From: Propionicimonas paludicola
GTDB lineage: Bacteria; Actinomycetota; Actinomycetes; Propionibacteriales; Propionibacteriaceae
Length of the DNA: 64,000 nucleotides
Direction of reading: 5' to 3'
NCBI RefSeq assembly: GCF_002563675.1
Contig: NZ_PDJC01000001.1
Span: forward strand, 2,852,001-2,916,000
A program made the translations under genes and the position numbers. The notes under the pieces were generated by a model. That model saw nothing but the letters and a program-made list of their open reading frames with translations. It made no database searches and was not told the DNA's origin. Below, piece by piece: positions 6,199 through 37,803 of the stretch; the stretch's first letter is position 1; each line of letters begins with the position of its first letter.

Positions 6199-9100
6199 CG
6201 CACCGCCAGCGGCTTGGTGGTCGTCGAGCCGGTGTACTTGGCCTTGTCGGACGGCACGAAGGTGGCCTTGATGGTGACCTTCTTGGTCTTCGGCCGATCG
6301 ACGGTCTTGACCGCCACGCCCTTCTTCACGGTGATCGTGTAGCTCTTCGAACCGACCTGGATGATCACCTTGCCGACCGCATTGCTGGGGCTCACCGTGA
6401 CGGTCACCCGCAGCTTCTTATCGGTCAGCGCGGTGCTCACCTTGGTGGAGGTCTTCACCGGAGCCTTGACCACCGTCACCTGCACGGTGGCCCGGGAGCC
6501 GTTGTGCAGTGCATCACCGGTGTACTCCAGGGTGAGCGTGTGGGTGCCGACCGAGAACCGGCCACCGGTGAAGGTGAGCGTCCCGGTGCCGTCGATCAGC
6601 CCCGGACGACCGAGCAGCGTCTTGCCTTCGCGGACGTCCACCGTGCCGGTGGGCAGGCTGGCCCCGCCGGTCACCTTCAGCTTCAGGGTGGCCGTGGCAT
6701 TGCCGTTGACGGTCAGCGGGAGTGCGCTGACCACGGTGTCGGCCTTGGCCACGCTCGGCTCGGTGACCTTCACAGCGATCGCCGTGTGCGACGGGTCGTG
6801 GGTGGCGTCACCGGCGTAGTCCACGGTCACCGGGTAGGTGCCGACCGGAGGCAGCGAGTTCACTGTGCACGAGACCGAGCCGTTGCCGATGGTGCCCCGG
6901 CACAGCTCGTCCTCACCGCTGGCGAACTGGACGGTGCCGCTGGCCGATGCCGGGCTGATCGTTGCCGACAGCACCGGGGAGGTGCCGAAGACCACGCTCA
7001 CGTTGCTGGCGCTGAGCTTGGTGGCCGTGCGATCCGGGACCGGAGTGGCCTTCACCGTCACCTGCCGGACGGCCTGAGCCTGGTTCTGGTTGGCATCCAC
7101 TGCGGAGTAGACCAGGGCGTAGCTGCCCGGCTTGCTGGTGTCGACCGAGCCGACCACCTGCAGGCTGCCGGAGACATCGCCGTCGGCGTTGTCGGTGGCG
7201 GTCACCTGGGCCAGGGCGTCGAAGCCAGCATCCTGATCGACGATGGTGTCGGTCGGGAAGCTGATCTTCGGCGCGGTGACGTCGGTGCCCTTCGCGGTGG
7301 CCTCGAAGACCCCACCGAACTGGTTCACGCTGCCCACCACATTGCCGTCGGCATTGGTGGTGGTCGCGGTCCAGGCGTAGGTCTTGCCGGCCTCCAACCC
7401 GGTCCAGGTCACCGAGGCCGGGAAGCCCGACTTGGCGGTGGCCGTGCCGATCACCTGATCGGTCGGGCTGAACACGCTCAGCGCCGAAGTGGCGAACGAG
7501 GTCTTCCGGCTGGTCAGATCGACCGGGACCGTGAAGTTGTCCTCGGACCCGTTGTAGCGGGCGGCCGGATCGTTGGCGGTGTTGCCGAAGGCGTCGAAGA
7601 ACGGCGAGTAGGTGTCCACCGACATCGTCGAGTCCTTGACGTTGAACTGCAGCACTCGCTGGTAGGCCGCCCCGAAGTAGAGCTGGTCGGTGGCCTTGTG
7701 GTCGACGGTGCCGTCGCCGTTGGTGTCGACCGAGCCGTCCGGAGCGATCACACAGGTCGGGCAGGTCTGCTTGGTGAAGATCTTGCTCGCCGGCAGCGTG
7801 TAGTTCTGGTAGTCAGCCAGCATTTCCACGGTGTGGTGGGTGATCTGGGTGGTGTTGGTCTGGTAGGTCTTCAGGTTCGTCCCCACCCCATGGATGTGGC
7901 CGGCCAGGACCAGGAAGACGTTCGGGTTGGCCGCGGCCACCTGCTGGTAGAGCCGGGAGCCGTCGCCGGTGGTGGCCACGTCACGGCCGTCCGGGTGGGA
8001 CGCGGTGGCTGCCGCCAGGTAGGAGTGGGTGATCAGGATCCCGTTGCGGTCGCGGTAGCGGGCGAAGACCTGGTTGGCCCAGTCGGCTTCGGCCTTGGTG
8101 ACGCCATAGGACAGGCCGACCGCGACGAAGTCGAGGCCGCCGGCCGAGAACAGCACGTAGTTGTTCTGGTTGTCGCCGCCCTGGCTGGTGGTCTTGCCAT
8201 CGGCATCGGCGGTCTCGTCCCACGCGTGGTAGGACGCTCCGGCCGGCCAGCCCTGCGCCTGCGCGTAGTAGTTGGCCGCACTGAACGCCTTACTGAACCG
8301 CGAGGTCGGGCCGGTCTCGACGCCGACCTGGTTGTCGTGGTTGCCGGCGATGGTCTGGTTGACCACTCCGGAGCCTTCCAGGCGCTTGAACTCCTTCGAG
8401 GCGAAGGCGTTCTCCTCATCCACGTGCGCGTTCAGGCCGGGGTACATCGGGCTGCCGTCGGGGTTGGTGGCGTCCGGGTTCACCAGGTCGTTGTTGATGA
8501 TGTCGCCGGTGTTGGCGGCGTACACGATCTTCTTGTCCTTGGCGTTGTCAGCGGTCCACTGCAGGGCCTGCGAGTAGGCCAGCGCCCACACCGCCTGCTC
8601 GTCGGCGGTCTGCACGCCGGACGAGGAGGTGTAGGTCGGGCTGGCCGGCCACTTGCCGGAGCCGCCGGTGGCGCCTTCGGCGATGAACTGCGGATCGGTC
8701 CAGTGGACGAAGGAGAAGTCGTAGCTCTCCGGCTTCTCGAAGTGGTTCTTCTCGTCGGGGGTACCGGCCGAGGAGTCGTGCGCGGACAGGTTGTCGGCGA
8801 ACGGGTCATTGCCGACCACCAGGACGTGCACCTTGCCGGCATCGACGGCATCGGACGGCGCGGTGCCGGACAGCACCACCTCGCCGTCGGCCAGGCCGGA
8901 CGCGCCGTCCAGCTTCAGCCACTTGGCCGAGGCGGCGTTCCACACGTACAGGGTGACCGCCCGCTGCGGATCGACCACACCGCTCCACCGGATCATCCGG
9001 TCGGCGTCGGCGGTGCCGACCTCCACATCGAAGCGCTGGAACGGCATCAGGTTGTGGCTGGACGGGCTGGCCACCGGCTGACCGGCGGACAGCTGGTCAC

Positions 9101-33130: not shown

Positions 33131-34282
33131 TCAGGCCAGGCCGGTGAGGACGGTGCCGAGGAGGACGATCCGGTCGAGGAGCGAGGCGAGCAGGACGTGC
33201 TCGCTGACCGCATGGGCGCCGCCGCCGCGGGGGCCGAAGCCGTCCAGGGTGGGGATGCCCAGGGAGCCGGTGGTGTTGGTATCGGCGGCGCCGGCAGCCG
33301 GACGTCCGGGCACCTCGAGGCCGGCTAGCTCACCGACCCGAGCCAGCAGCGCCTGATCGGCGGACGACGCCGCCCACGCCGGACGCGAGCTGAGCACCTC
33401 AAGCTCGATCACGGCCCCCGGACGCACCGGCGCCAGCCCGTCCAGGACGGCCATCACGTCCGCCTCGGCAGCAGCGCTGGCGAACCGGAAGCCGATCAGC
33501 GCCTCCGCGGCACCAGGCACGACATTGGTCCTACCGCCACCACTCACCCCGCCGACGTTCACCAGCACCTCGCCGGGCCGGGCCGCCGACACCCGGGCCA
33601 CCTCGGTGCGCAGCACCAGCAGCTGATCGACCAGTTCTTCGATGGCCGACACCCCGCCGTCGGGATCCAGCGCGGCGTGCGACTCGCGCCCAACCACCTT
33701 CAACTTCACTCGGGTCGAACCGAGTCGGCCGACCTTCAGAGCACCATCCGGATGCGGCGACTCGAAGCCGAACACCGCCTGCACCCCGGCGGCCGCCTCC
33801 CGTACCAGCGCGGTCGCCGAACCAGAGCCGACCTCCTCGTCCGCGGCGATCAGCACCCGGATCGGCGGACGCGGCAAGTCCAGGGCAGCCAGCGCCCGAA
33901 CGGCGGCCAGCATCACCACCAGGCCCGACTTCATGTCGTAGGCACCCGGCCCGCGCAGCACGCCGTCAGCAACTGAGAAGGGCACCGAGCCGACCAGCGT
34001 CCCGATCGGCCACACGGTGTCACTGTGGCCCAGCAGCAGCACCGGGGAGGTCTCTGACGAGGCGACGGAAGGAACGTCGACGATCAGATGGCTGCCCGCC
34101 GAGCTCGGCTCGATCCGGGCCTCGCCCAGCGTCGTCCAGGCCGCCGCAAGCAGCCCGGCAATCTCCGCGCTACTGGCCAGATCGTGGCTCGGGCTCTCCA
34201 GTTCGATCAGCGTGGTGAGCTCGGCGACCAGCGCCTGCTCGTCCAGCTGCTCGCGGATCCGATCCGCCACGCTCTGCGCCAT
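33131..34282 (-). CDS. M20-family metallopeptidase / N-acyl-amino-acid deacylase
   Basis: This 383-aa protein resembles the M20 carboxypeptidase G2/desuccinylase group. Di-zinc ligands and catalytic residues visible are H86 (LLGHSDTVW), D116 (GAYDMKSG), E149/E150 (ADEEVGS) and a late His in GGAHAVSEH. A dimerisation domain lies between. An excellent AGGAGG precedes the ATG by 5 nt. It is divergent from a GNAT-SIS-NSAR-aminotransferase operon. In characterised NSAR pathways an M20 enzyme removes the succinyl group from N-succinyl-L-amino acids, so that role is inferred here. Confidence 0.8.
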   Translation of the reverse strand: MAQSVADRIREQLDEQALVAELTTLIELESPSHDLASSAEIAGLLAAAWTTLGEARIEPSSAGSHLIVDVPSVASSETSPVLLLGHSDTVWPIGTLVGSVPFSVADGVLRGPGAYDMKSGLVVMLAAVRALAALDLPRPPIRVLIAADEEVGSGSATALVREAAAGVQAVFGFESPHPDGALKVGRLGSTRVKLKVVGRESHAALDPDGGVSAIEELVDQLLVLRTEVARVSAARPGEVLVNVGGVSGGGRTNVVPGAAEALIGFRFASAAAEADVMAVLDGLAPVRPGAVIELEVLSSRPAWAASSADQALLARVGELAGLEVPGRPAAGAADTNTTGSLGIPTLDGFGPRGGGAHAVSEHVLLASLLDRIVLLGTVLTGLA

Positions 34283-34374
34283 CAAAGACCTCCTGTGTCT
34301 TACGTACCCTATCTTCTGACCACTCTCACTGTCTCTCCCTGCGAGAAGGCTCACACCGGCAAAGATACGAAACC

Positions 34375-34380
34375 TATAGT
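34375..34380 (+). promoter_or_regulatory. -10 element of the GNAT operon
   Basis: TATAGT lies 6 nt before the ATG at 34387, and no ribosome binding site is present, so transcription probably starts at or next to the A of the start codon. Confidence 0.55.
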
Positions 34381-34386
34381 TCAACC

Positions 34387-35118
34387 ATGAGCACTCACGG
34401 CGACCTGCACGTCGGCCCCCTTTCGGCCGCCGCAGATCTGACCAGCGCCTCGCAGCTGTACCGCGACGTCTTCGGCTACACCAAGCCCGAGGCCAGCCTG
34501 AACCCGCGGCTGCTGAAGGCGCTGGCCGCCAACGGCGGCTCCATGGTGGGCGCCTGGGACGCCACCGGCGCGCTCGTGGCCTTCGGCTACGGCTTCGTCG
34601 GCCACGCCGGCGGCGAAACCTACTTCTACTCTCAGGCCGTCGTGGTCGCGGACGGCCTGCAGGGCGCCGGGCTGGGCCGCCGGATCAAGAACGAGCAGCG
34701 GCGGCTGGCGCTGGCCGACGGACTGCACCGGATGCGCTGGGCCTACAACCCGGTGCTGTCCCGCAACGCGCACTTCAACCTGTCAGTCCTGGGTGCGGTC
34801 GGACGCTGGTTCGTCCCCGACTGCTACGGCGACGGCGAATCCCGAATGGTCGTCGATTGGGATCTCGACCAGGCCCGTCCCGCGCCCAGCCCGCAGCCCT
34901 GGGCCAGCTACACTGCGGACGACTGGAGCCGCGCCGACCGGCAGGGGGCCTTCGCGGCCGTCCCGGTGCCGGTGAACCGCGACCTCGTGACTCCGCAGGT
35001 GAACCAAGCCCTCGACGAGTCCTTCAGCGCCCTGCTGGCCGACGGCCTGGTCGCCGTGGCGTGCAACCGCCAAGACCACAAGACGTCGGTCTACCTGTTC
35101 GCGGAGGCCGACCGATGA
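34387..35118 (+). CDS. GNAT-family acyltransferase, putative amino-acid N-succinyltransferase
   Basis: This 243-aa protein has acyl-CoA binding motif A in VVVADGLQGAGLGRRIKNEQ and then WAYNPVLSRNAHFNLSVLGA with a following YG. This pattern is that of the GNAT subgroup (COG3375-like) encoded next to N-succinylamino acid racemases. By analogy it would transfer succinyl from succinyl-CoA to a D-amino acid (inference). The C-terminal third is less conserved. Its stop overlaps the SIS gene start (ATGA). It is the first gene of a four-gene coupled operon. Confidence 0.75.
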   Translation: MSTHGDLHVGPLSAAADLTSASQLYRDVFGYTKPEASLNPRLLKALAANGGSMVGAWDATGALVAFGYGFVGHAGGETYFYSQAVVVADGLQGAGLGRRIKNEQRRLALADGLHRMRWAYNPVLSRNAHFNLSVLGAVGRWFVPDCYGDGESRMVVDWDLDQARPAPSPQPWASYTADDWSRADRQGAFAAVPVPVNRDLVTPQVNQALDESFSALLADGLVAVACNRQDHKTSVYLFAEADR

Positions 35119-35804
35119 GCCAGCCGAAACAGCACGTCCAGAACGCCAAACACGAGCAGAACCGGACGCTGCGCAGCCCCGGCGAGCGCTACCAGGCCCG
35201 GATGGAGTCCACCTCCTCGGCCACCCTGCAGGCCCGACTGATCGCCTCCGAACTGGAGAACCTCACTGAGGTCTTCGAGCGGCTGAGCACCGACGGCAGC
35301 CTGCGCCGAGCAGCCGCGCTGACCGTGGCCGCCCGCCGCCGGTTCGTGATCGGGGCCGGCAAGAGCCACGCCTACGCCAGCCTGCTGGCCAGTGACCTGT
35401 CCGCGGCGGTCGCTCAGGTCAGCCTGGTGGACGACTCCAGCCTGAGCACGCTCGACCTGCTCAGCGACGTCCGCGAATCCGACGTGCTGATCGCCTTCTC
35501 GTTCCGCCGGTACCGGCGCACCACGGTCGAGGTGGCCCAGCAGTTCGCCGCAGCCGGTGGAACCGTGATCGCCATCACCGACGACGCCTCGGCTCCGCTG
35601 GGCCGCTACGCCCACGAGGTGGTCGAGGTCGGCACCGACTCAGCCTCCTACGCTGACTCCCCGACCGCGGTTGCGGCCACGATTCACCTCCTGGCCACCC
35701 TGACCACGGCCAGCGCCAAGGGCGCCCGGCGCCGGTTCGCCGATCGGGACCGGATCTCGACGGCCTTGGGCATGTACCTGGACGAGAGCGAGACCGCCGA
35801 ATGA
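35115..35804 (+). CDS. SIS-domain protein without HTH
   Basis: This 229-aa protein has a basic, probably disordered N-terminus of about 35 residues, then helices and a SIS sugar-isomerase fold (FVIGAGKSHAYASLLASDLS, LLSDVRESDVLIAFSFRRY, GTVIAITDDASAPLGRYA). RpiR regulators have an HTH before this domain; here it is lacking, so the protein is either an isomerase or a stand-alone ligand sensor. It is coupled by ATGA overlaps on both sides, which puts it inside the NSAR operon, where no such gene is required by the known pathway. Confidence 0.75.
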   Translation: MSQPKQHVQNAKHEQNRTLRSPGERYQARMESTSSATLQARLIASELENLTEVFERLSTDGSLRRAAALTVAARRRFVIGAGKSHAYASLLASDLSAAVAQVSLVDDSSLSTLDLLSDVRESDVLIAFSFRRYRRTTVEVAQQFAAAGGTVIAITDDASAPLGRYAHEVVEVGTDSASYADSPTAVAATIHLLATLTTASAKGARRRFADRDRISTALGMYLDESETAE

Positions 35805-36919
35805 GAGTCGTCGCTGCCGCGCTGCACACCGTCCGGCTGCCGTTGGTGCACGAGTTCCAGACCAGCTCGCACGCCAAGCGGCACCTGGATCACATCCTGG
35901 TGCAGCTCACCGACGAGTCCGGGGCGGTCGGCTGGGGCGAGATCGCGTCCGCCTCGCACCCGTTCTACGGATCCGAGACCGTCGAGACCGCCACCTTGAT
36001 CGCGCAGCGCTACCTGCTGCCGGCGCTGGTCGGCAAAGAGTGGACGCATCCGTCCGAGGCGGCTCGGCTGTGGGCCAAGGTGCGCGGCAACGAGTTCGCC
36101 AAGGCCGGCGTCGACATGGCCTGCTGGACGCTGTTCGCCCAGGTCAGCGGGCAATCGCTGGCCTCGGCGCTGGGTGGCGTCCGCGATCGTGCGGCCACCG
36201 GAGTATCGCTGGGCATCGAGCCGACCATCGACGCGCTGGTCGAACAGGTCGGCGCCCAGATCGAGGCCGGCTACCGCCGAGTGAAGCTGAAGATCGCCCC
36301 GGGCTGGGACGTCGAGCCGGTCAAGGCCGTCCGGGCCACCTTCGGCGACCACGACCTGCACGTGGACGCCAACGGCGCCTACCCGGCCGACGACGCCTCG
36401 TTCGCCATCATGCGCGAGCTCGACCGCTACCGGCTGACCATGATCGAGCAGCCGTTCGCGCCCAGGAACTTTGTCGACCACGCCCGGCTCCAAGCCCAAC
36501 TCGACACCGCGGTCTGCCTGGACGAGGCCGTCGAGACCCTGGACGATCTGGCCACCCTGATCGAGCTGCAGGCCGGACGGATCCTGAACATCAAGGTCTC
36601 CCGGATGGGCGGCCTGACCACGGCGGTGGCGGCCCACGACCGGGCCACCGCCGCCGGCATCAGAGTCTGGTGCGGCGGCATGCACGAGTTCGGCATCGGC
36701 CGCGCGGCCAACGTGGCGCTGTGCGCGCTGCCCGGCTTCGAGCTGCCCTCGGACGTCTCCGGTTCGGCCAAGTACTACGCCCGCGACGTCATCGTCCCGG
36801 TGGTGGAAACCACCGCCGACGGCTACGTCGTGATTCCCACCCAACCCGGCCTCGGGTTCGACGTCGACACCGAATGGGTCGCCGCCAACACCTTGGCCAC
36901 CAGCCAGATAGAGGAATGA
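35801..36919 (+). CDS. Enolase-superfamily N-succinylamino acid racemase / OSBS-like enzyme
   Basis: This 372-aa muconate-lactonizing-enzyme subgroup member has all expected catalytic residues: KxK (K162, K164), metal ligands D189, E216 and D241, and the opposing lysine K265. The motifs are VKLKIAPGWD, HVDANGAY, MIEQPF, CLDE and NIKVSRMGG. The family includes o-succinylbenzoate synthase (MenC) and N-succinylamino acid racemase; no men genes are nearby and the GNAT and M20 neighbours favour racemisation. It overlaps both neighbours by 4 nt. Confidence 0.8.
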   Translation: MRVVAAALHTVRLPLVHEFQTSSHAKRHLDHILVQLTDESGAVGWGEIASASHPFYGSETVETATLIAQRYLLPALVGKEWTHPSEAARLWAKVRGNEFAKAGVDMACWTLFAQVSGQSLASALGGVRDRAATGVSLGIEPTIDALVEQVGAQIEAGYRRVKLKIAPGWDVEPVKAVRATFGDHDLHVDANGAYPADDASFAIMRELDRYRLTMIEQPFAPRNFVDHARLQAQLDTAVCLDEAVETLDDLATLIELQAGRILNIKVSRMGGLTTAVAAHDRATAAGIRVWCGGMHEFGIGRAANVALCALPGFELPSDVSGSAKYYARDVIVPVVETTADGYVVIPTQPGLGFDVDTEWVAANTLATSQIEE

Positions 36920-37803
36920 GCATGTCCGCCTGCATCATCGTCAGCCCGGTCGAGGCGTCCGCGGAAGCCGAACTGGCCGCCCGACTGCATGTGGTCGACT
37001 CCGACCAGCCCCAGGTGTCCGTCCTCGATCTGGGCGTGACCAGGGGTGATGGCATCTTCGAGGTGCTCGGTGTGATCAACGGCAAGCCGCAGGCCGTGGA
37101 CGCCCACCTGCGCCGTCTGGGCGTCTCCGCGGCCATGCTCGACCTGCCGAAGCTCGACCTGGAGGCGATCCGGGCCGCGATCTACCAGGTGGTCGAGCTC
37201 GCCGAGAAGCACGACGAGTTCTCGGTGAAGGTGATCGTCACCCGCGGCATCGAAGGCTCCGGCGTGGCCACGGCGTGGGTGCTGGCCTTCAAGGCGCCGG
37301 ACGACTTCGCCGCCGAGCGGGCCGAGGGAGTCAAGGTCGTCCTTCTCGATCGGGGCTACCCGCACGACATCGCGGCCCGGGCTCCGTGGTTGTTGGCCGG
37401 CGCCAAGACGCTGTCCTACGCGGTGAACAAGGCCGTCCTGCGTGAGGCGGCCCGCCGCGGCGCGGACGACGTGGTCTTCACCAGCTCGGACGGCTACCTG
37501 CTGGAGGGCCCCAGCGCCAGCCTGATCCTGAAGTTCGGCAACAAGATCTGGACGCCGGCCACGGCGCAGGGGATCCTGCCCGGCACCACCCAGGGCGCGG
37601 CCTTCGAGTACTTCGCCGATGCCGGCTTCGCCACTGCCCAGGTGCTGCTGCGCACCGAGCAGCTGTGGGACGCCGACGCCGCCTGGCTCACCTCGTCCGG
37701 ACGGATGCTGGTGCCGATCTGCGAGGTCGATGGACGTCCGATCCCGGTCGATCACGCCCTCACCGAAGCCGGCAACGCCGCCCTGCTGGCCCGGACGAAC
37801 TAG
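36916..37803 (+). CDS. Class IV PLP aminotransferase (ADC lyase / D-amino acid transaminase type)
   Basis: This 295-aa fold-type IV enzyme has its PLP lysine at K164 in GAKTLSYAVNKAVLR and the following DDVVFTSSDGYLLEGPSASLIL. It closely resembles mycobacterial PabC-like proteins (Rv0812 type), reported as aminodeoxychorismate lyase with D-amino acid transaminase activity. In this operon a D-amino acid role is attractive (inference). The ATG at 36916 overlaps the preceding stop; ATG 36922 is an alternative. GAGG precedes it. Confidence 0.75.
   Translation: MSMSACIIVSPVEASAEAELAARLHVVDSDQPQVSVLDLGVTRGDGIFEVLGVINGKPQAVDAHLRRLGVSAAMLDLPKLDLEAIRAAIYQVVELAEKHDEFSVKVIVTRGIEGSGVATAWVLAFKAPDDFAAERAEGVKVVLLDRGYPHDIAARAPWLLAGAKTLSYAVNKAVLREAARRGADDVVFTSSDGYLLEGPSASLILKFGNKIWTPATAQGILPGTTQGAAFEYFADAGFATAQVLLRTEQLWDADAAWLTSSGRMLVPICEVDGRPIPVDHALTEAGNAALLARTN

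What the first reader, a model, noticed from the sequence alone, without database searches (positions are those of the whole stretch)
33131..37803. Candidate expanded N-succinyl-amino-acid racemase (D-amino acid salvage) cluster
Seen: a four-gene operon with ATGA overlaps (GNAT, SIS, enolase-superfamily, class IV aminotransferase) and a divergent M20 deacylase. The enolase protein keeps all residues of the MLE/NSAR-OSBS group (K162, K164, D189, E216, D241, K265). Known: in Geobacillus-type pathways a GNAT enzyme succinylates D-amino acids, NSAR racemises them and an M20 enzyme desuccinylates the L form. Inference: the same route operates here. Novel parts are the coupled SIS protein (no HTH) and a D-amino-acid-transaminase-like enzyme, which could supply, consume or sense D-amino acids.
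Basis: partly seen in the sequence, partly recalled or inferred. Interest (0 to 1): 0.75.

Follow-up and report, generated by a model that had tools for sequence, protein, structure and literature searches.

The report
Regulated D-amino-acid salvage gene cluster
A small gene cluster found across many actinobacteria probably converts D-amino acids (such as those in bacterial cell walls) into the usable L forms, and it carries an unstudied protein that resembles the sensing half of a gene regulator and travels together with a conserved DNA control site.

Summary
In detail: a divergent M20 hydrolase and a GNAT–SIS–NSAR–class IV aminotransferase operon with three ATGA overlaps. The NSAR reading is well supported: the enzyme passes TIGR01928, keeps the catalytic residues, and the genome has its own menC beside a UbiA-type (menA-like) gene. 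SIS is a core member: in the order sample it abuts 40 of 45 cassette-type NSAR genes and 0 of 61 other NSAR-family genes; 58 of 80 SIS loci from named genomes keep M20<-|GNAT-SIS-NSAR->. Many relatives add a dipeptide ABC importer, LD-carboxypeptidase, M19 dipeptidase, beta-lactamase-fold hydrolases or an Amidohydro_3 protein, pointing to cell-wall-peptide and D-amino-acid salvage. The aminotransferase is nearest to CpuTA1, a measured D-alanine transaminase.
New: a 17-bp palindrome (aGATACGtwaCGTATCt) lies in the promoter gap, twice in the window and nowhere else in its 64 kb at >=12 bits. A site of >=14 bits is in 75 of 80 SIS loci; none of >=12 bits is in 5 SIS-less relatives nested in the cassette clade (two inferred losses) or in 14 other NSAR loci. 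The SIS model is nearest to RpiR effector domains but has no HTH. I propose that SIS senses the substrate and controls this regulon; what contacts DNA is unknown.

The parts
33131..34282 (-). M20 metallohydrolase, candidate N-succinyl (N-acyl) L-amino acid deacylase, divergent from the operon
   Evidence: Pfam Peptidase_M20 90.8 bits; nearest solved relatives carboxypeptidase G2 and, lower, succinyl-diaminopimelate desuccinylase; divergent M20 within 4 kb of SIS in 59 of 80 loci
34298..34314 (.). Operator-like palindrome 1 (TCTTACGTACCCTATCT), 16.9 bits, M20 side
   Evidence: one of only two sites >=12 bits in the 64 kb window
34363..34379 (.). Operator-like palindrome 2 (AGATACGAAACCTATAG), 18.2 bits, ends 7 bp before the GNAT start codon
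   Evidence: overlaps a TATAGT hexamer (34375-34380) read by eye; the sigma-70 scan found no promoter in the gap
34387..35118 (+). GNAT acyltransferase, candidate D-amino acid N-succinyltransferase
   Evidence: no Pfam or NCBIfam hit; AlphaFold model pLDDT 92.9 matches GNAT acetyltransferases; the same profile hits a GNAT in 12 of 14 other NSAR loci
35115..35804 (+). Stand-alone SIS-domain protein, candidate effector sensor/regulator of the regulon
   Evidence: Pfam SIS 60.5 bits, no HTH; model closest to RpiR effector domains; adjacent to 40 of 45 cassette-type NSAR genes in the order sample
35801..36919 (+). Enolase-superfamily N-succinylamino acid racemase (NSAR/OSBS subfamily)
   Evidence: TIGR01928 298.9 bits, cut-off 200.65; N-acylamino acid racemases lead the named PDB matches; catalytic residues and R268 present
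36916..37803 (+). Class IV (fold type IV) aminotransferase, CpuTA1-like; candidate D-amino acid transaminase
   Evidence: Pfam Aminotran_4 148.4 bits; 51% identical to CpuTA1 and 41% to the genome's own PabC-type protein; downstream of NSAR in 24 of 80 loci

Best explanation
This is a D-amino-acid salvage cassette of the N-succinylamino acid racemase type. Inferred steps: the GNAT acylates a D-amino acid with succinyl-CoA, the enolase-superfamily enzyme racemises the N-succinyl amino acid, the M20 enzyme frees the L-amino acid, and the class IV aminotransferase, where present, takes D-amino acids directly to 2-oxo acids. In many relatives the cassette sits with importers and hydrolases of D-containing peptides, so cell-wall peptides are the likely source. 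The SIS protein is most likely the ligand-sensing part of the cassette's own regulator: an RpiR-type effector domain without the usual HTH, acting on a 17-bp palindrome, usually one or two copies, in the M20|GNAT gap and in front of related transporter and SIS genes. Shown by computation: gene order, family membership, conservation, the operator and its co-occurrence with SIS. Inferred: every catalytic step, the ligand, and that SIS acts through the operator, directly or with an unknown DNA-binding partner.
For: NSAR: TIGR01928 passes; N-acylamino acid racemases lead the named PDB matches; catalytic residues and R268 kept, while the genome's own MenC has P at R268; dedicated MenC elsewhere. 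GNAT fold. Cassette: 58 of 80 SIS loci from named genomes have exactly M20<-|GNAT-SIS-NSAR->, 24 of them followed by the aminotransferase; 40 of 45 cassette-type NSAR genes lie within 500 bp of SIS against 0 of 61 other NSAR-family genes; class sample: 17 of 17 genomes with cassette-type NSAR also hold SIS. Neighbours in the 80 loci: SBP_bac_5 and permease clusters in 27 each, S66 in 15, Amidohydro_3 in 23, a merged cluster with PF00144 and M19 proteins in 28, named by Pfam on examples. Aminotransferase nearest CpuTA1, which transaminates D-alanine (passages of PMC5131300). Operator: 64 of 65 gaps have a site >=11 bits; trained on 28 Microbacteriaceae gaps and tested on 37 others, 33 of 37 at >=10 bits against a shuffled mean of 0.08; 75 of 80 SIS loci have a site >=14 bits, and 152 of 156 such sites lie in front of a gene of the system; 0 of 5 SIS-less cassette-type loci and 0 of 14 other NSAR loci at >=12 bits; the 5 are nested in the cassette clade in two places, and two of them still have the divergent M20|GNAT gap. 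SIS model nearest RpiR effector domains. RccR of that family binds 15-bp 6-3-6 sites, two of them 68 bp apart (passages of PMC5489143). Paired operators here favour a 10.5-bp phase over 11 genera.
Against: No activity or binding has been measured for these proteins. NSAR and OSBS activities cannot be told apart by family models. The SIS protein has no recognisable DNA-binding domain, so direct control of the operator is unproven and an unlinked regulator is not excluded; its best NCBIfam model is the isomerase HxlB (TIGR03127, 36.5 bits, far below its cut-off of 160), ahead of RpiR regulators. Some SIS genes lack the operator: 5 of 80 loci have no site >=14 bits (L079, L129-L131, and the full cassette L134), and L097 has one only far from SIS; G426 has SIS, GNAT, NSAR and M20 but no site. 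Two losses are few events, and three of the five SIS-less loci also lack the divergent M20, so their promoters were rebuilt in any case. The window genome has no S66 carboxypeptidase and no importer beside the cassette, so the cell-wall link rests on relatives. TIGR01121 (D-amino acid transaminase) is far below its cut-off for the aminotransferase, and the aminotransferase tree does not resolve the place of CpuTA1.
Confidence: 0.6

Rival explanations
1. The SIS protein is an enzyme of the pathway (for example an isomerase or deglycase on an amino-acid conjugate), and the palindrome belongs to an unlinked regulator.
For: K83 and H191 are invariant in the 42 rows of alignment A4, while the six paralogue rows of A1 keep K83 in 1 and H191 in 0; Lys and His are the kind of residues SIS isomerases use (recalled). 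The best NCBIfam model is HxlB, below its cut-off. Foldseek matches isomerases from rank 7 down.
Against: Best PDB sequence match and ranks 1-6 of the fold search are RpiR-type regulators. Five cassette-type loci and the other NSAR operons do without it. The neighbours named by Pfam are peptide and D-amino acid type genes, not sugar genes. SIS and operator are both missing in two nested lineages.
Confidence: 0.2
2. The SIS protein is an allosteric or scaffold subunit of the GNAT or NSAR enzyme.
For: SIS and NSAR abut: the matched stretches are -4 to 99 bp apart in the 40 order-sample pairs, and in the window the genes overlap by 4 bases; R25 and R29 of an N-terminal tail are the same in 42 of 42 rows.
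Against: SIS occurs apart from GNAT and NSAR (Actinomadura, L132, L074, L085) with the operator in front of it or of a neighbour. The paralogue in L050 sits with S66 and M19 peptidases and a peptide importer instead.
Confidence: 0.15
3. The enolase-superfamily protein serves mainly as O-succinylbenzoate synthase for menaquinone.
For: It passes the model named o-succinylbenzoate synthase, TIGR01928, a family that mixes both activities (recalled).
Against: A dedicated MenC beside a UbiA-type gene in the same genome; co-conservation with GNAT and M20.
Confidence: 0.04
4. The class IV aminotransferase is the folate enzyme aminodeoxychorismate lyase and is in the operon by chance.
For: NF005888 just passes (274.1 against 273).
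Against: The genome has another NF005888 protein (284.6 bits) and a PabB-type protein with an aminotransferase-like C-terminus; the window protein is closer to CpuTA1 (51%) than to the own PabC-type protein (41%); 24 of 80 loci carry it in the same place.
Confidence: 0.2

Closest known systems
Geobacillus-type NSAR pathway (GNAT succinyltransferase, NSAR, M20 desuccinylase); pathway recalled, a table of NSAR kinetics seen in passages of PMC8142540
   Same: The same three enzyme families, adjacent; NSAR catalytic residues; separate menC
   Different: Adds a stand-alone SIS protein, a shared palindromic operator and, in part, a CpuTA1-like aminotransferase; M20 is divergent; the cassette NSARs group apart from the other actinobacterial NSARs sampled
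RpiR/MurR/HexR/RccR transcription regulators
   Same: SIS effector domain (3sho and RccR 8k3b lead the fold matches); 6-3-6 palindrome with A/T-rich spacer, often in two copies, as for RccR (passages); HexR motif TGTAATTAAATTACA has the same layout (passages)
   Different: No N-terminal HTH in the window protein or 41 relatives
CpuTA1 (Curtobacterium pusillum fold type IV transaminase, PDB 5k3w)
   Same: 51% identity to the window aminotransferase, 55-57% to the Cryobacterium and Glaciihabitans cassette enzymes; measured D-alanine/2-oxoglutarate activity
   Different: CpuTA1's genomic setting was not examined here; it was studied mainly as an (R)-amine transaminase
DgcN/DgcA N-acetyl-D-glutamate racemisation route (recalled; DgcA model NF042940)
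   Same: Same logic: acylate, racemise with an enolase-superfamily enzyme, deacylate
   Different: NF042940 is far below cut-off (104.2 against 400); the acyltransferase here has a GNAT fold

Membership tests
NSAR pathway | Racemase of the NSAR/OSBS subfamily of the MLE group | tested here: met
   TIGR01928 298.9 against 200.65; N-acylamino acid racemases lead the named PDB matches
NSAR pathway | Catalytic KxK, D/E/D metal ligands, second Lys, and the Arg three residues after it (importance of the Arg recalled) | tested here: met
   K162, K164, D189, E216, D241, K265, R268 in all NSAR-family rows compared; own MenC has P and L002 has K in place of R268
NSAR pathway | Linked GNAT acyltransferase and M20 deacylase | tested here: met
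NSAR pathway | Succinyl specificity, racemisation and desuccinylation | not testable with these tools
   needs enzyme assays
MenC (menaquinone OSBS) | The genome's only OSBS, linked to men genes | tested here: not met
   separate MenC NF002782 395.7 against 288 beside a UbiA-type gene
RpiR/MurR transcription regulator | C-terminal SIS effector domain | tested here: met
RpiR/MurR transcription regulator | N-terminal HTH domain | tested here: not met
   no HTH family in 42 rows at E<=1; model shows only helices 9-17 and 22-60 before the SIS part
RpiR/MurR transcription regulator | Short palindromic operator in the controlled promoters | tested here: met
   binding itself not tested
SIS sugar isomerase | Sugar-phosphate loop of the S-x-S-G-x-T kind (motif recalled) | tested here: not met
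   loop reads SFRRYRRTT; S129, R132 and T137 invariant in alignment A1
SIS sugar isomerase | Passes an isomerase family model | tested here: not met
   TIGR03127 HxlB 36.5 against 160
Aminodeoxychorismate lyase | Passes the family model | tested here: met
   NF005888 274.1 against 273
Aminodeoxychorismate lyase | Needed for folate in this genome | tested here: inconclusive
   another NF005888 protein and a PabB-type protein with an aminotransferase-like C-terminus exist
D-amino acid transaminase | Passes TIGR01121 | tested here: not met
   54.6 against 277.45
D-amino acid transaminase | D-amino acid activity | not testable with these tools
   only the relative CpuTA1 has been measured

The most novel reading that the evidence does not exclude
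The HTH-less SIS protein is itself the DNA-binding, substrate-sensing regulator of a D-amino-acid and cell-wall-peptide salvage regulon. It would bind a 6-3-6 palindrome through a part not yet known as a DNA-binding domain (the tail with invariant R25 and R29 at the start of the long helix, or the invariant ASAKGA-RR segment), two complexes cooperating on one face of the DNA. That would be a new kind of bacterial regulator derived from RpiR proteins by loss of the HTH.
Probability: 0.25. Interest if true: 0.8.

Novelty: new variant of a known kind. Interest (0 to 1): 0.62.

Why it matters
How bacteria recycle D-amino acids from cell walls by the acylate-racemise-deacylate route is poorly mapped, and no regulator of an NSAR cluster turned up in the paper listings that I searched. 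The cassette gives a defined, widespread actinobacterial regulon with a ready operator, an unstudied sensor protein and a likely genomic setting for CpuTA1-like D-transaminases. If the SIS protein binds DNA, it breaks the rule that RpiR-type regulation needs an HTH; if it does not, the operator is the bait for finding the partner.

Tried and rejected
Considered and rejected or downgraded. (1) Menaquinone OSBS: own MenC. (2) SIS as a chance neighbour. (3) A hidden N-terminal HTH; in Actinomadura L108 the operator (8118-8134) lies just in front of the SIS ORF start (8152), leaving no room. (4) A conserved small ORF encoding a separate DNA-binding protein beside the cassette: the 12 largest groups of shared short segments were listed; by their letters they read as shadow frames of known genes; none was annotated, so this is weak. 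(5) Other sites in the own genome: 36 matches at up to 2 mismatches against 29 for the reversed control; scored by the matrix, the window site is best (18.4 on its 15-base core), the next (16.0) lies inside an ABC ATPase ORF, then 14.0 and 13.1, not examined further. That pattern cannot find sites like window palindrome 1, which has 3 mismatches. (6) Sites in six other genomes at up to 1 mismatch: of the four perfect matches two are at cassettes; the others are at a class III aminotransferase gene (L215) and beside a TetR gene (L216). (7) A promoter: the sigma-70 scan found none in 34200-34450.

Paper searches: listings only, except passages of PMC5131300, PMC8142540, PMC5489143 and PMC11906056. 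No listed title or abstract start told of an SIS protein in an NSAR cluster; most subscription papers are not in that library.

Rows dropped before counts: the 80 loci are the best 80 of 129 relatives. A4 used 41 of 78 SIS ORFs (under 88% identity to each other) plus the window; A5 used 34 of 58 non-redundant GNATs plus the window; the NSAR tree used 24 of 71 cassette NSARs. The operator set is 64 of 80 loci (M20 and GNAT divergent, closer than 600 bp) plus the window. The spacing test kept sites >=11 bits, so the L058 pair (132 bp, second site printed as 11.0) was left out; it is poorly phased and would weaken the test; Kribbella, with spacings 75 and 110, entered as their median. Genera and the Microbacteriaceae training set were assigned by hand from record titles. 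Shuffles were of single letters.
Full report
Observation. The window lies in a 3.26-Mb single-contig genome.

Enzymes. The enolase-superfamily protein passes TIGR01928 (298.9 against 200.65). Among its solved relatives a hypothetical Listeria protein is first, followed by N-acylamino acid racemases. The named catalytic residues are present in all 49 rows compared. R268, whose counterpart is recalled as important for NSAR activity, is kept in all NSAR-family rows but is P in the genome's own MenC and K in another relative, L002. The own MenC (NF002782, 395.7 against 288) sits beside a UbiA-type prenyltransferase gene, as menA would. The GNAT has no Pfam or NCBIfam hit, but its model (pLDDT 92.9) matches GNAT acetyltransferases. 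The M20 protein passes Pfam Peptidase_M20; its nearest solved relatives are carboxypeptidase G2 and, lower, DapE. The aminotransferase just passes an aminodeoxychorismate lyase model. Its closest solved relative is CpuTA1, 51% identical against 41% to the genome's own NF005888 protein; the tree leaves the place of CpuTA1 unresolved. CpuTA1 was active with D-alanine and 2-oxoglutarate, and L-alanine was not accepted (passages of PMC5131300).

Conservation. In 245 genomes of the order, 51 have an SIS match at E<=1e-15 and 87 an NSAR-family match at E<=1e-80. NSAR scores fall into two groups: 45 genes above 576 bits (cassette type) and 61 of 366 bits or less. SIS lies within 500 bp of 40 of the 45 and of 0 of the 61; the matched stretches are -4 to 99 bp apart (the Fisher p of 2.9e-30 there takes no account of kinship). 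In 340 genomes of the class, 17 have a cassette-type NSAR and all 17 have SIS; by their coordinates 16 are adjacent and G426 is not. Four further genomes have SIS only. In the even phylum sample 2 of 396 genomes have SIS, the two with NSAR scores above 500 bits. A scan of named genomes gave 129 relatives; the best 80 loci were kept. Within 4 kb of SIS, NSAR is found on the same strand in 63 of 80, GNAT in 62, divergent M20 in 59 and the aminotransferase in 24; 58 of 80 have the exact order M20<-|GNAT-SIS-NSAR->, 24 of them with the aminotransferase after NSAR. Exceptions: in nine Actinomadura loci SIS stands about 4 kb from an NSAR-GNAT pair on the other strand, and eight loci (L074, L079, L085, L097, L129-L132) hold SIS without the others.

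Neighbours. Recurrent extra genes in the 80 loci: dipeptide-type solute-binding protein and permease clusters (27 loci each), LD-carboxypeptidase S66 (15), an Amidohydro_3 cluster (23), a possible ion or organic acid transporter (18), and a merged cluster that holds PF00144 beta-lactamase-type and M19 dipeptidase proteins (28). Pfam names come from one or a few examples of each. In Microbacterium L081 the order is permease, SBP_bac_5, M20 <- | -> GNAT, SIS, NSAR, aminotransferase, M19 (with a second domain), beta-lactamase-type, Amidohydro_3. A second group of SIS proteins sits without NSAR; in L050 it lies with S66, M19 and the same kind of importer (Pfam), and by sequence clustering L047 and L051-L054 share parts of that set. 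Together this points to peptides with D-amino acids, most simply from peptidoglycan. The window genome itself has no S66, and its six SBP_bac_5 matches lie outside the window, so it seems to carry a reduced version.

Operator. The M20|GNAT gaps of the window and 64 loci share a palindrome. A symmetric 17-bp matrix, aGATACGtwaCGTATCt, finds a site of >=11 bits in 64 of 65 gaps, against 0.3 on average after shuffling; that matrix was trained on the same gaps. As an independent test, a de novo matrix from 28 Microbacteriaceae gaps recovered 33 of 37 other gaps at >=10 bits (shuffled mean 0.08). The window has two sites of >=12 bits in 64 kb, both in the gap, 34298-34314 and 34363-34379. In the 80 loci 75 have a site >=14 bits; 152 of 156 such sites lie within 350 bp in front of a gene of the system: mostly GNAT and M20, then the importer's SBP_bac_5 gene, then SIS (no random control was run for this count). 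Among paralogue-type SIS loci, L047, L050 and L052 have a 15-16-bit site between M20 and SBP_bac_5, L053 a 15.7-bit and L051 a 12.3-bit site near the SBP_bac_5 gene, and L048, L049, L054 and L055 none >=12. Thirty-three of 65 gaps have two sites >=11 bits. Their spacing differs between genera but tends to whole helical turns (11 genera, best period 10.5; P 0.001 at 10.5, 0.03 with the period scanned). That is suggestive, not strong; one out-of-phase pair (L058, 132 bp) fell just under the score limit.

Link to SIS. None of 5 SIS-less cassette-type loci (L170-L174) and none of 14 other NSAR loci (L176-L189, 12 of them with a GNAT) has a site >=12 bits; the five genomes gave no SIS match at E<=1e-15. 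In the tree the five fall inside the cassette clade in two separate places, beside Kribbella and beside Actinomadura, so SIS seems to have been lost twice and the palindrome with it each time. L173 and L174 still have the divergent M20|GNAT gap; L170-L172 have GNAT-NSAR without M20, so there the promoter was rebuilt anyway. The palindrome also goes with SIS where NSAR is not in the locus (L132, L074, L085). Against: L079 and L129-L131 have SIS and no site >=14 bits, L097 has one only far from SIS, L134 has the cassette with no site (best 6.2 bits), L043 has only a 12.7-bit site, and G426 has SIS, GNAT, NSAR and M20 and no site.

Mechanism of SIS. The model of the SIS protein (pLDDT 88.3) is closest to effector domains of RpiR-type regulators (3sho, TM 0.87 by target length, then RccR); the first isomerase ranks 7th, and NanR and MurR follow. 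Against this, its best NCBIfam model is the isomerase HxlB, far below cut-off. It has no HTH. RccR binds a 15-bp 6-3-6 palindrome with an A/T-rich spacer, two copies 68 bp apart in front of aceE (passages of PMC5489143). The palindrome here has the same geometry. None of the recurrent neighbour clusters that I named is a regulator, whereas three of the other NSAR loci (L181, L185, L188) have a PucR-type regulator next door. I therefore take SIS as the sensing part of the regulator. What touches DNA is open: either SIS itself, for which invariant R25/R29 and the ASAKGA-RR segment are candidates, or a partner encoded elsewhere. Palindrome 2 in the window overlaps a TATAGT hexamer 6 bases from the GNAT start, which would fit repression of a near-leaderless transcript; this is read by eye and the promoter scan did not support it.

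Verdict. The SIS protein is the real novelty, as a core, operator-linked member of a widespread actinobacterial regulon. Pathway confidence is about 0.8, SIS as part of the regulator about 0.55, SIS as the DNA-binding protein itself about 0.25. The checking round changed counts and wording, not these odds.

Noticed in passing
L002 (G000:C1:572859-576461): A second MLE-type enzyme nearest to dipeptide epimerase models (below cut-off) sits directly beside a class A beta-lactamase-like protein, also below the family cut-off.
   Followed up: partly
L047-L054: Paralogous HTH-less SIS proteins without NSAR; in L050 beside LD-carboxypeptidase S66, M19 dipeptidase and a dipeptide ABC importer. Six such rows keep K83 in 1 and H191 in 0.
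   Followed up: partly
L181:8782-10443, L185:8813-10480, L188:9111-10763: PucR-type regulators (HTH_30) follow the NSAR gene in three other GNAT-NSAR loci.
   Followed up: no
L216 (G914:C1:6814440-6814506): Two similar GATACG/CGTATC palindromes beside a TetR gene in Actinomadura, so TetR-type proteins may use like half-sites.
   Followed up: no
L170-L172: Three Propionibacteriaceae relatives keep a cassette-type GNAT-NSAR pair without SIS and M20; in L170 it follows an SBP_bac_3 amino-acid-type ABC transporter.
   Followed up: partly
L061-L064: The Cryobacterium and Glaciihabitans cassette aminotransferases are 55-57% identical to CpuTA1, which gives that orphan transaminase group a likely genomic setting.
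   Followed up: partly
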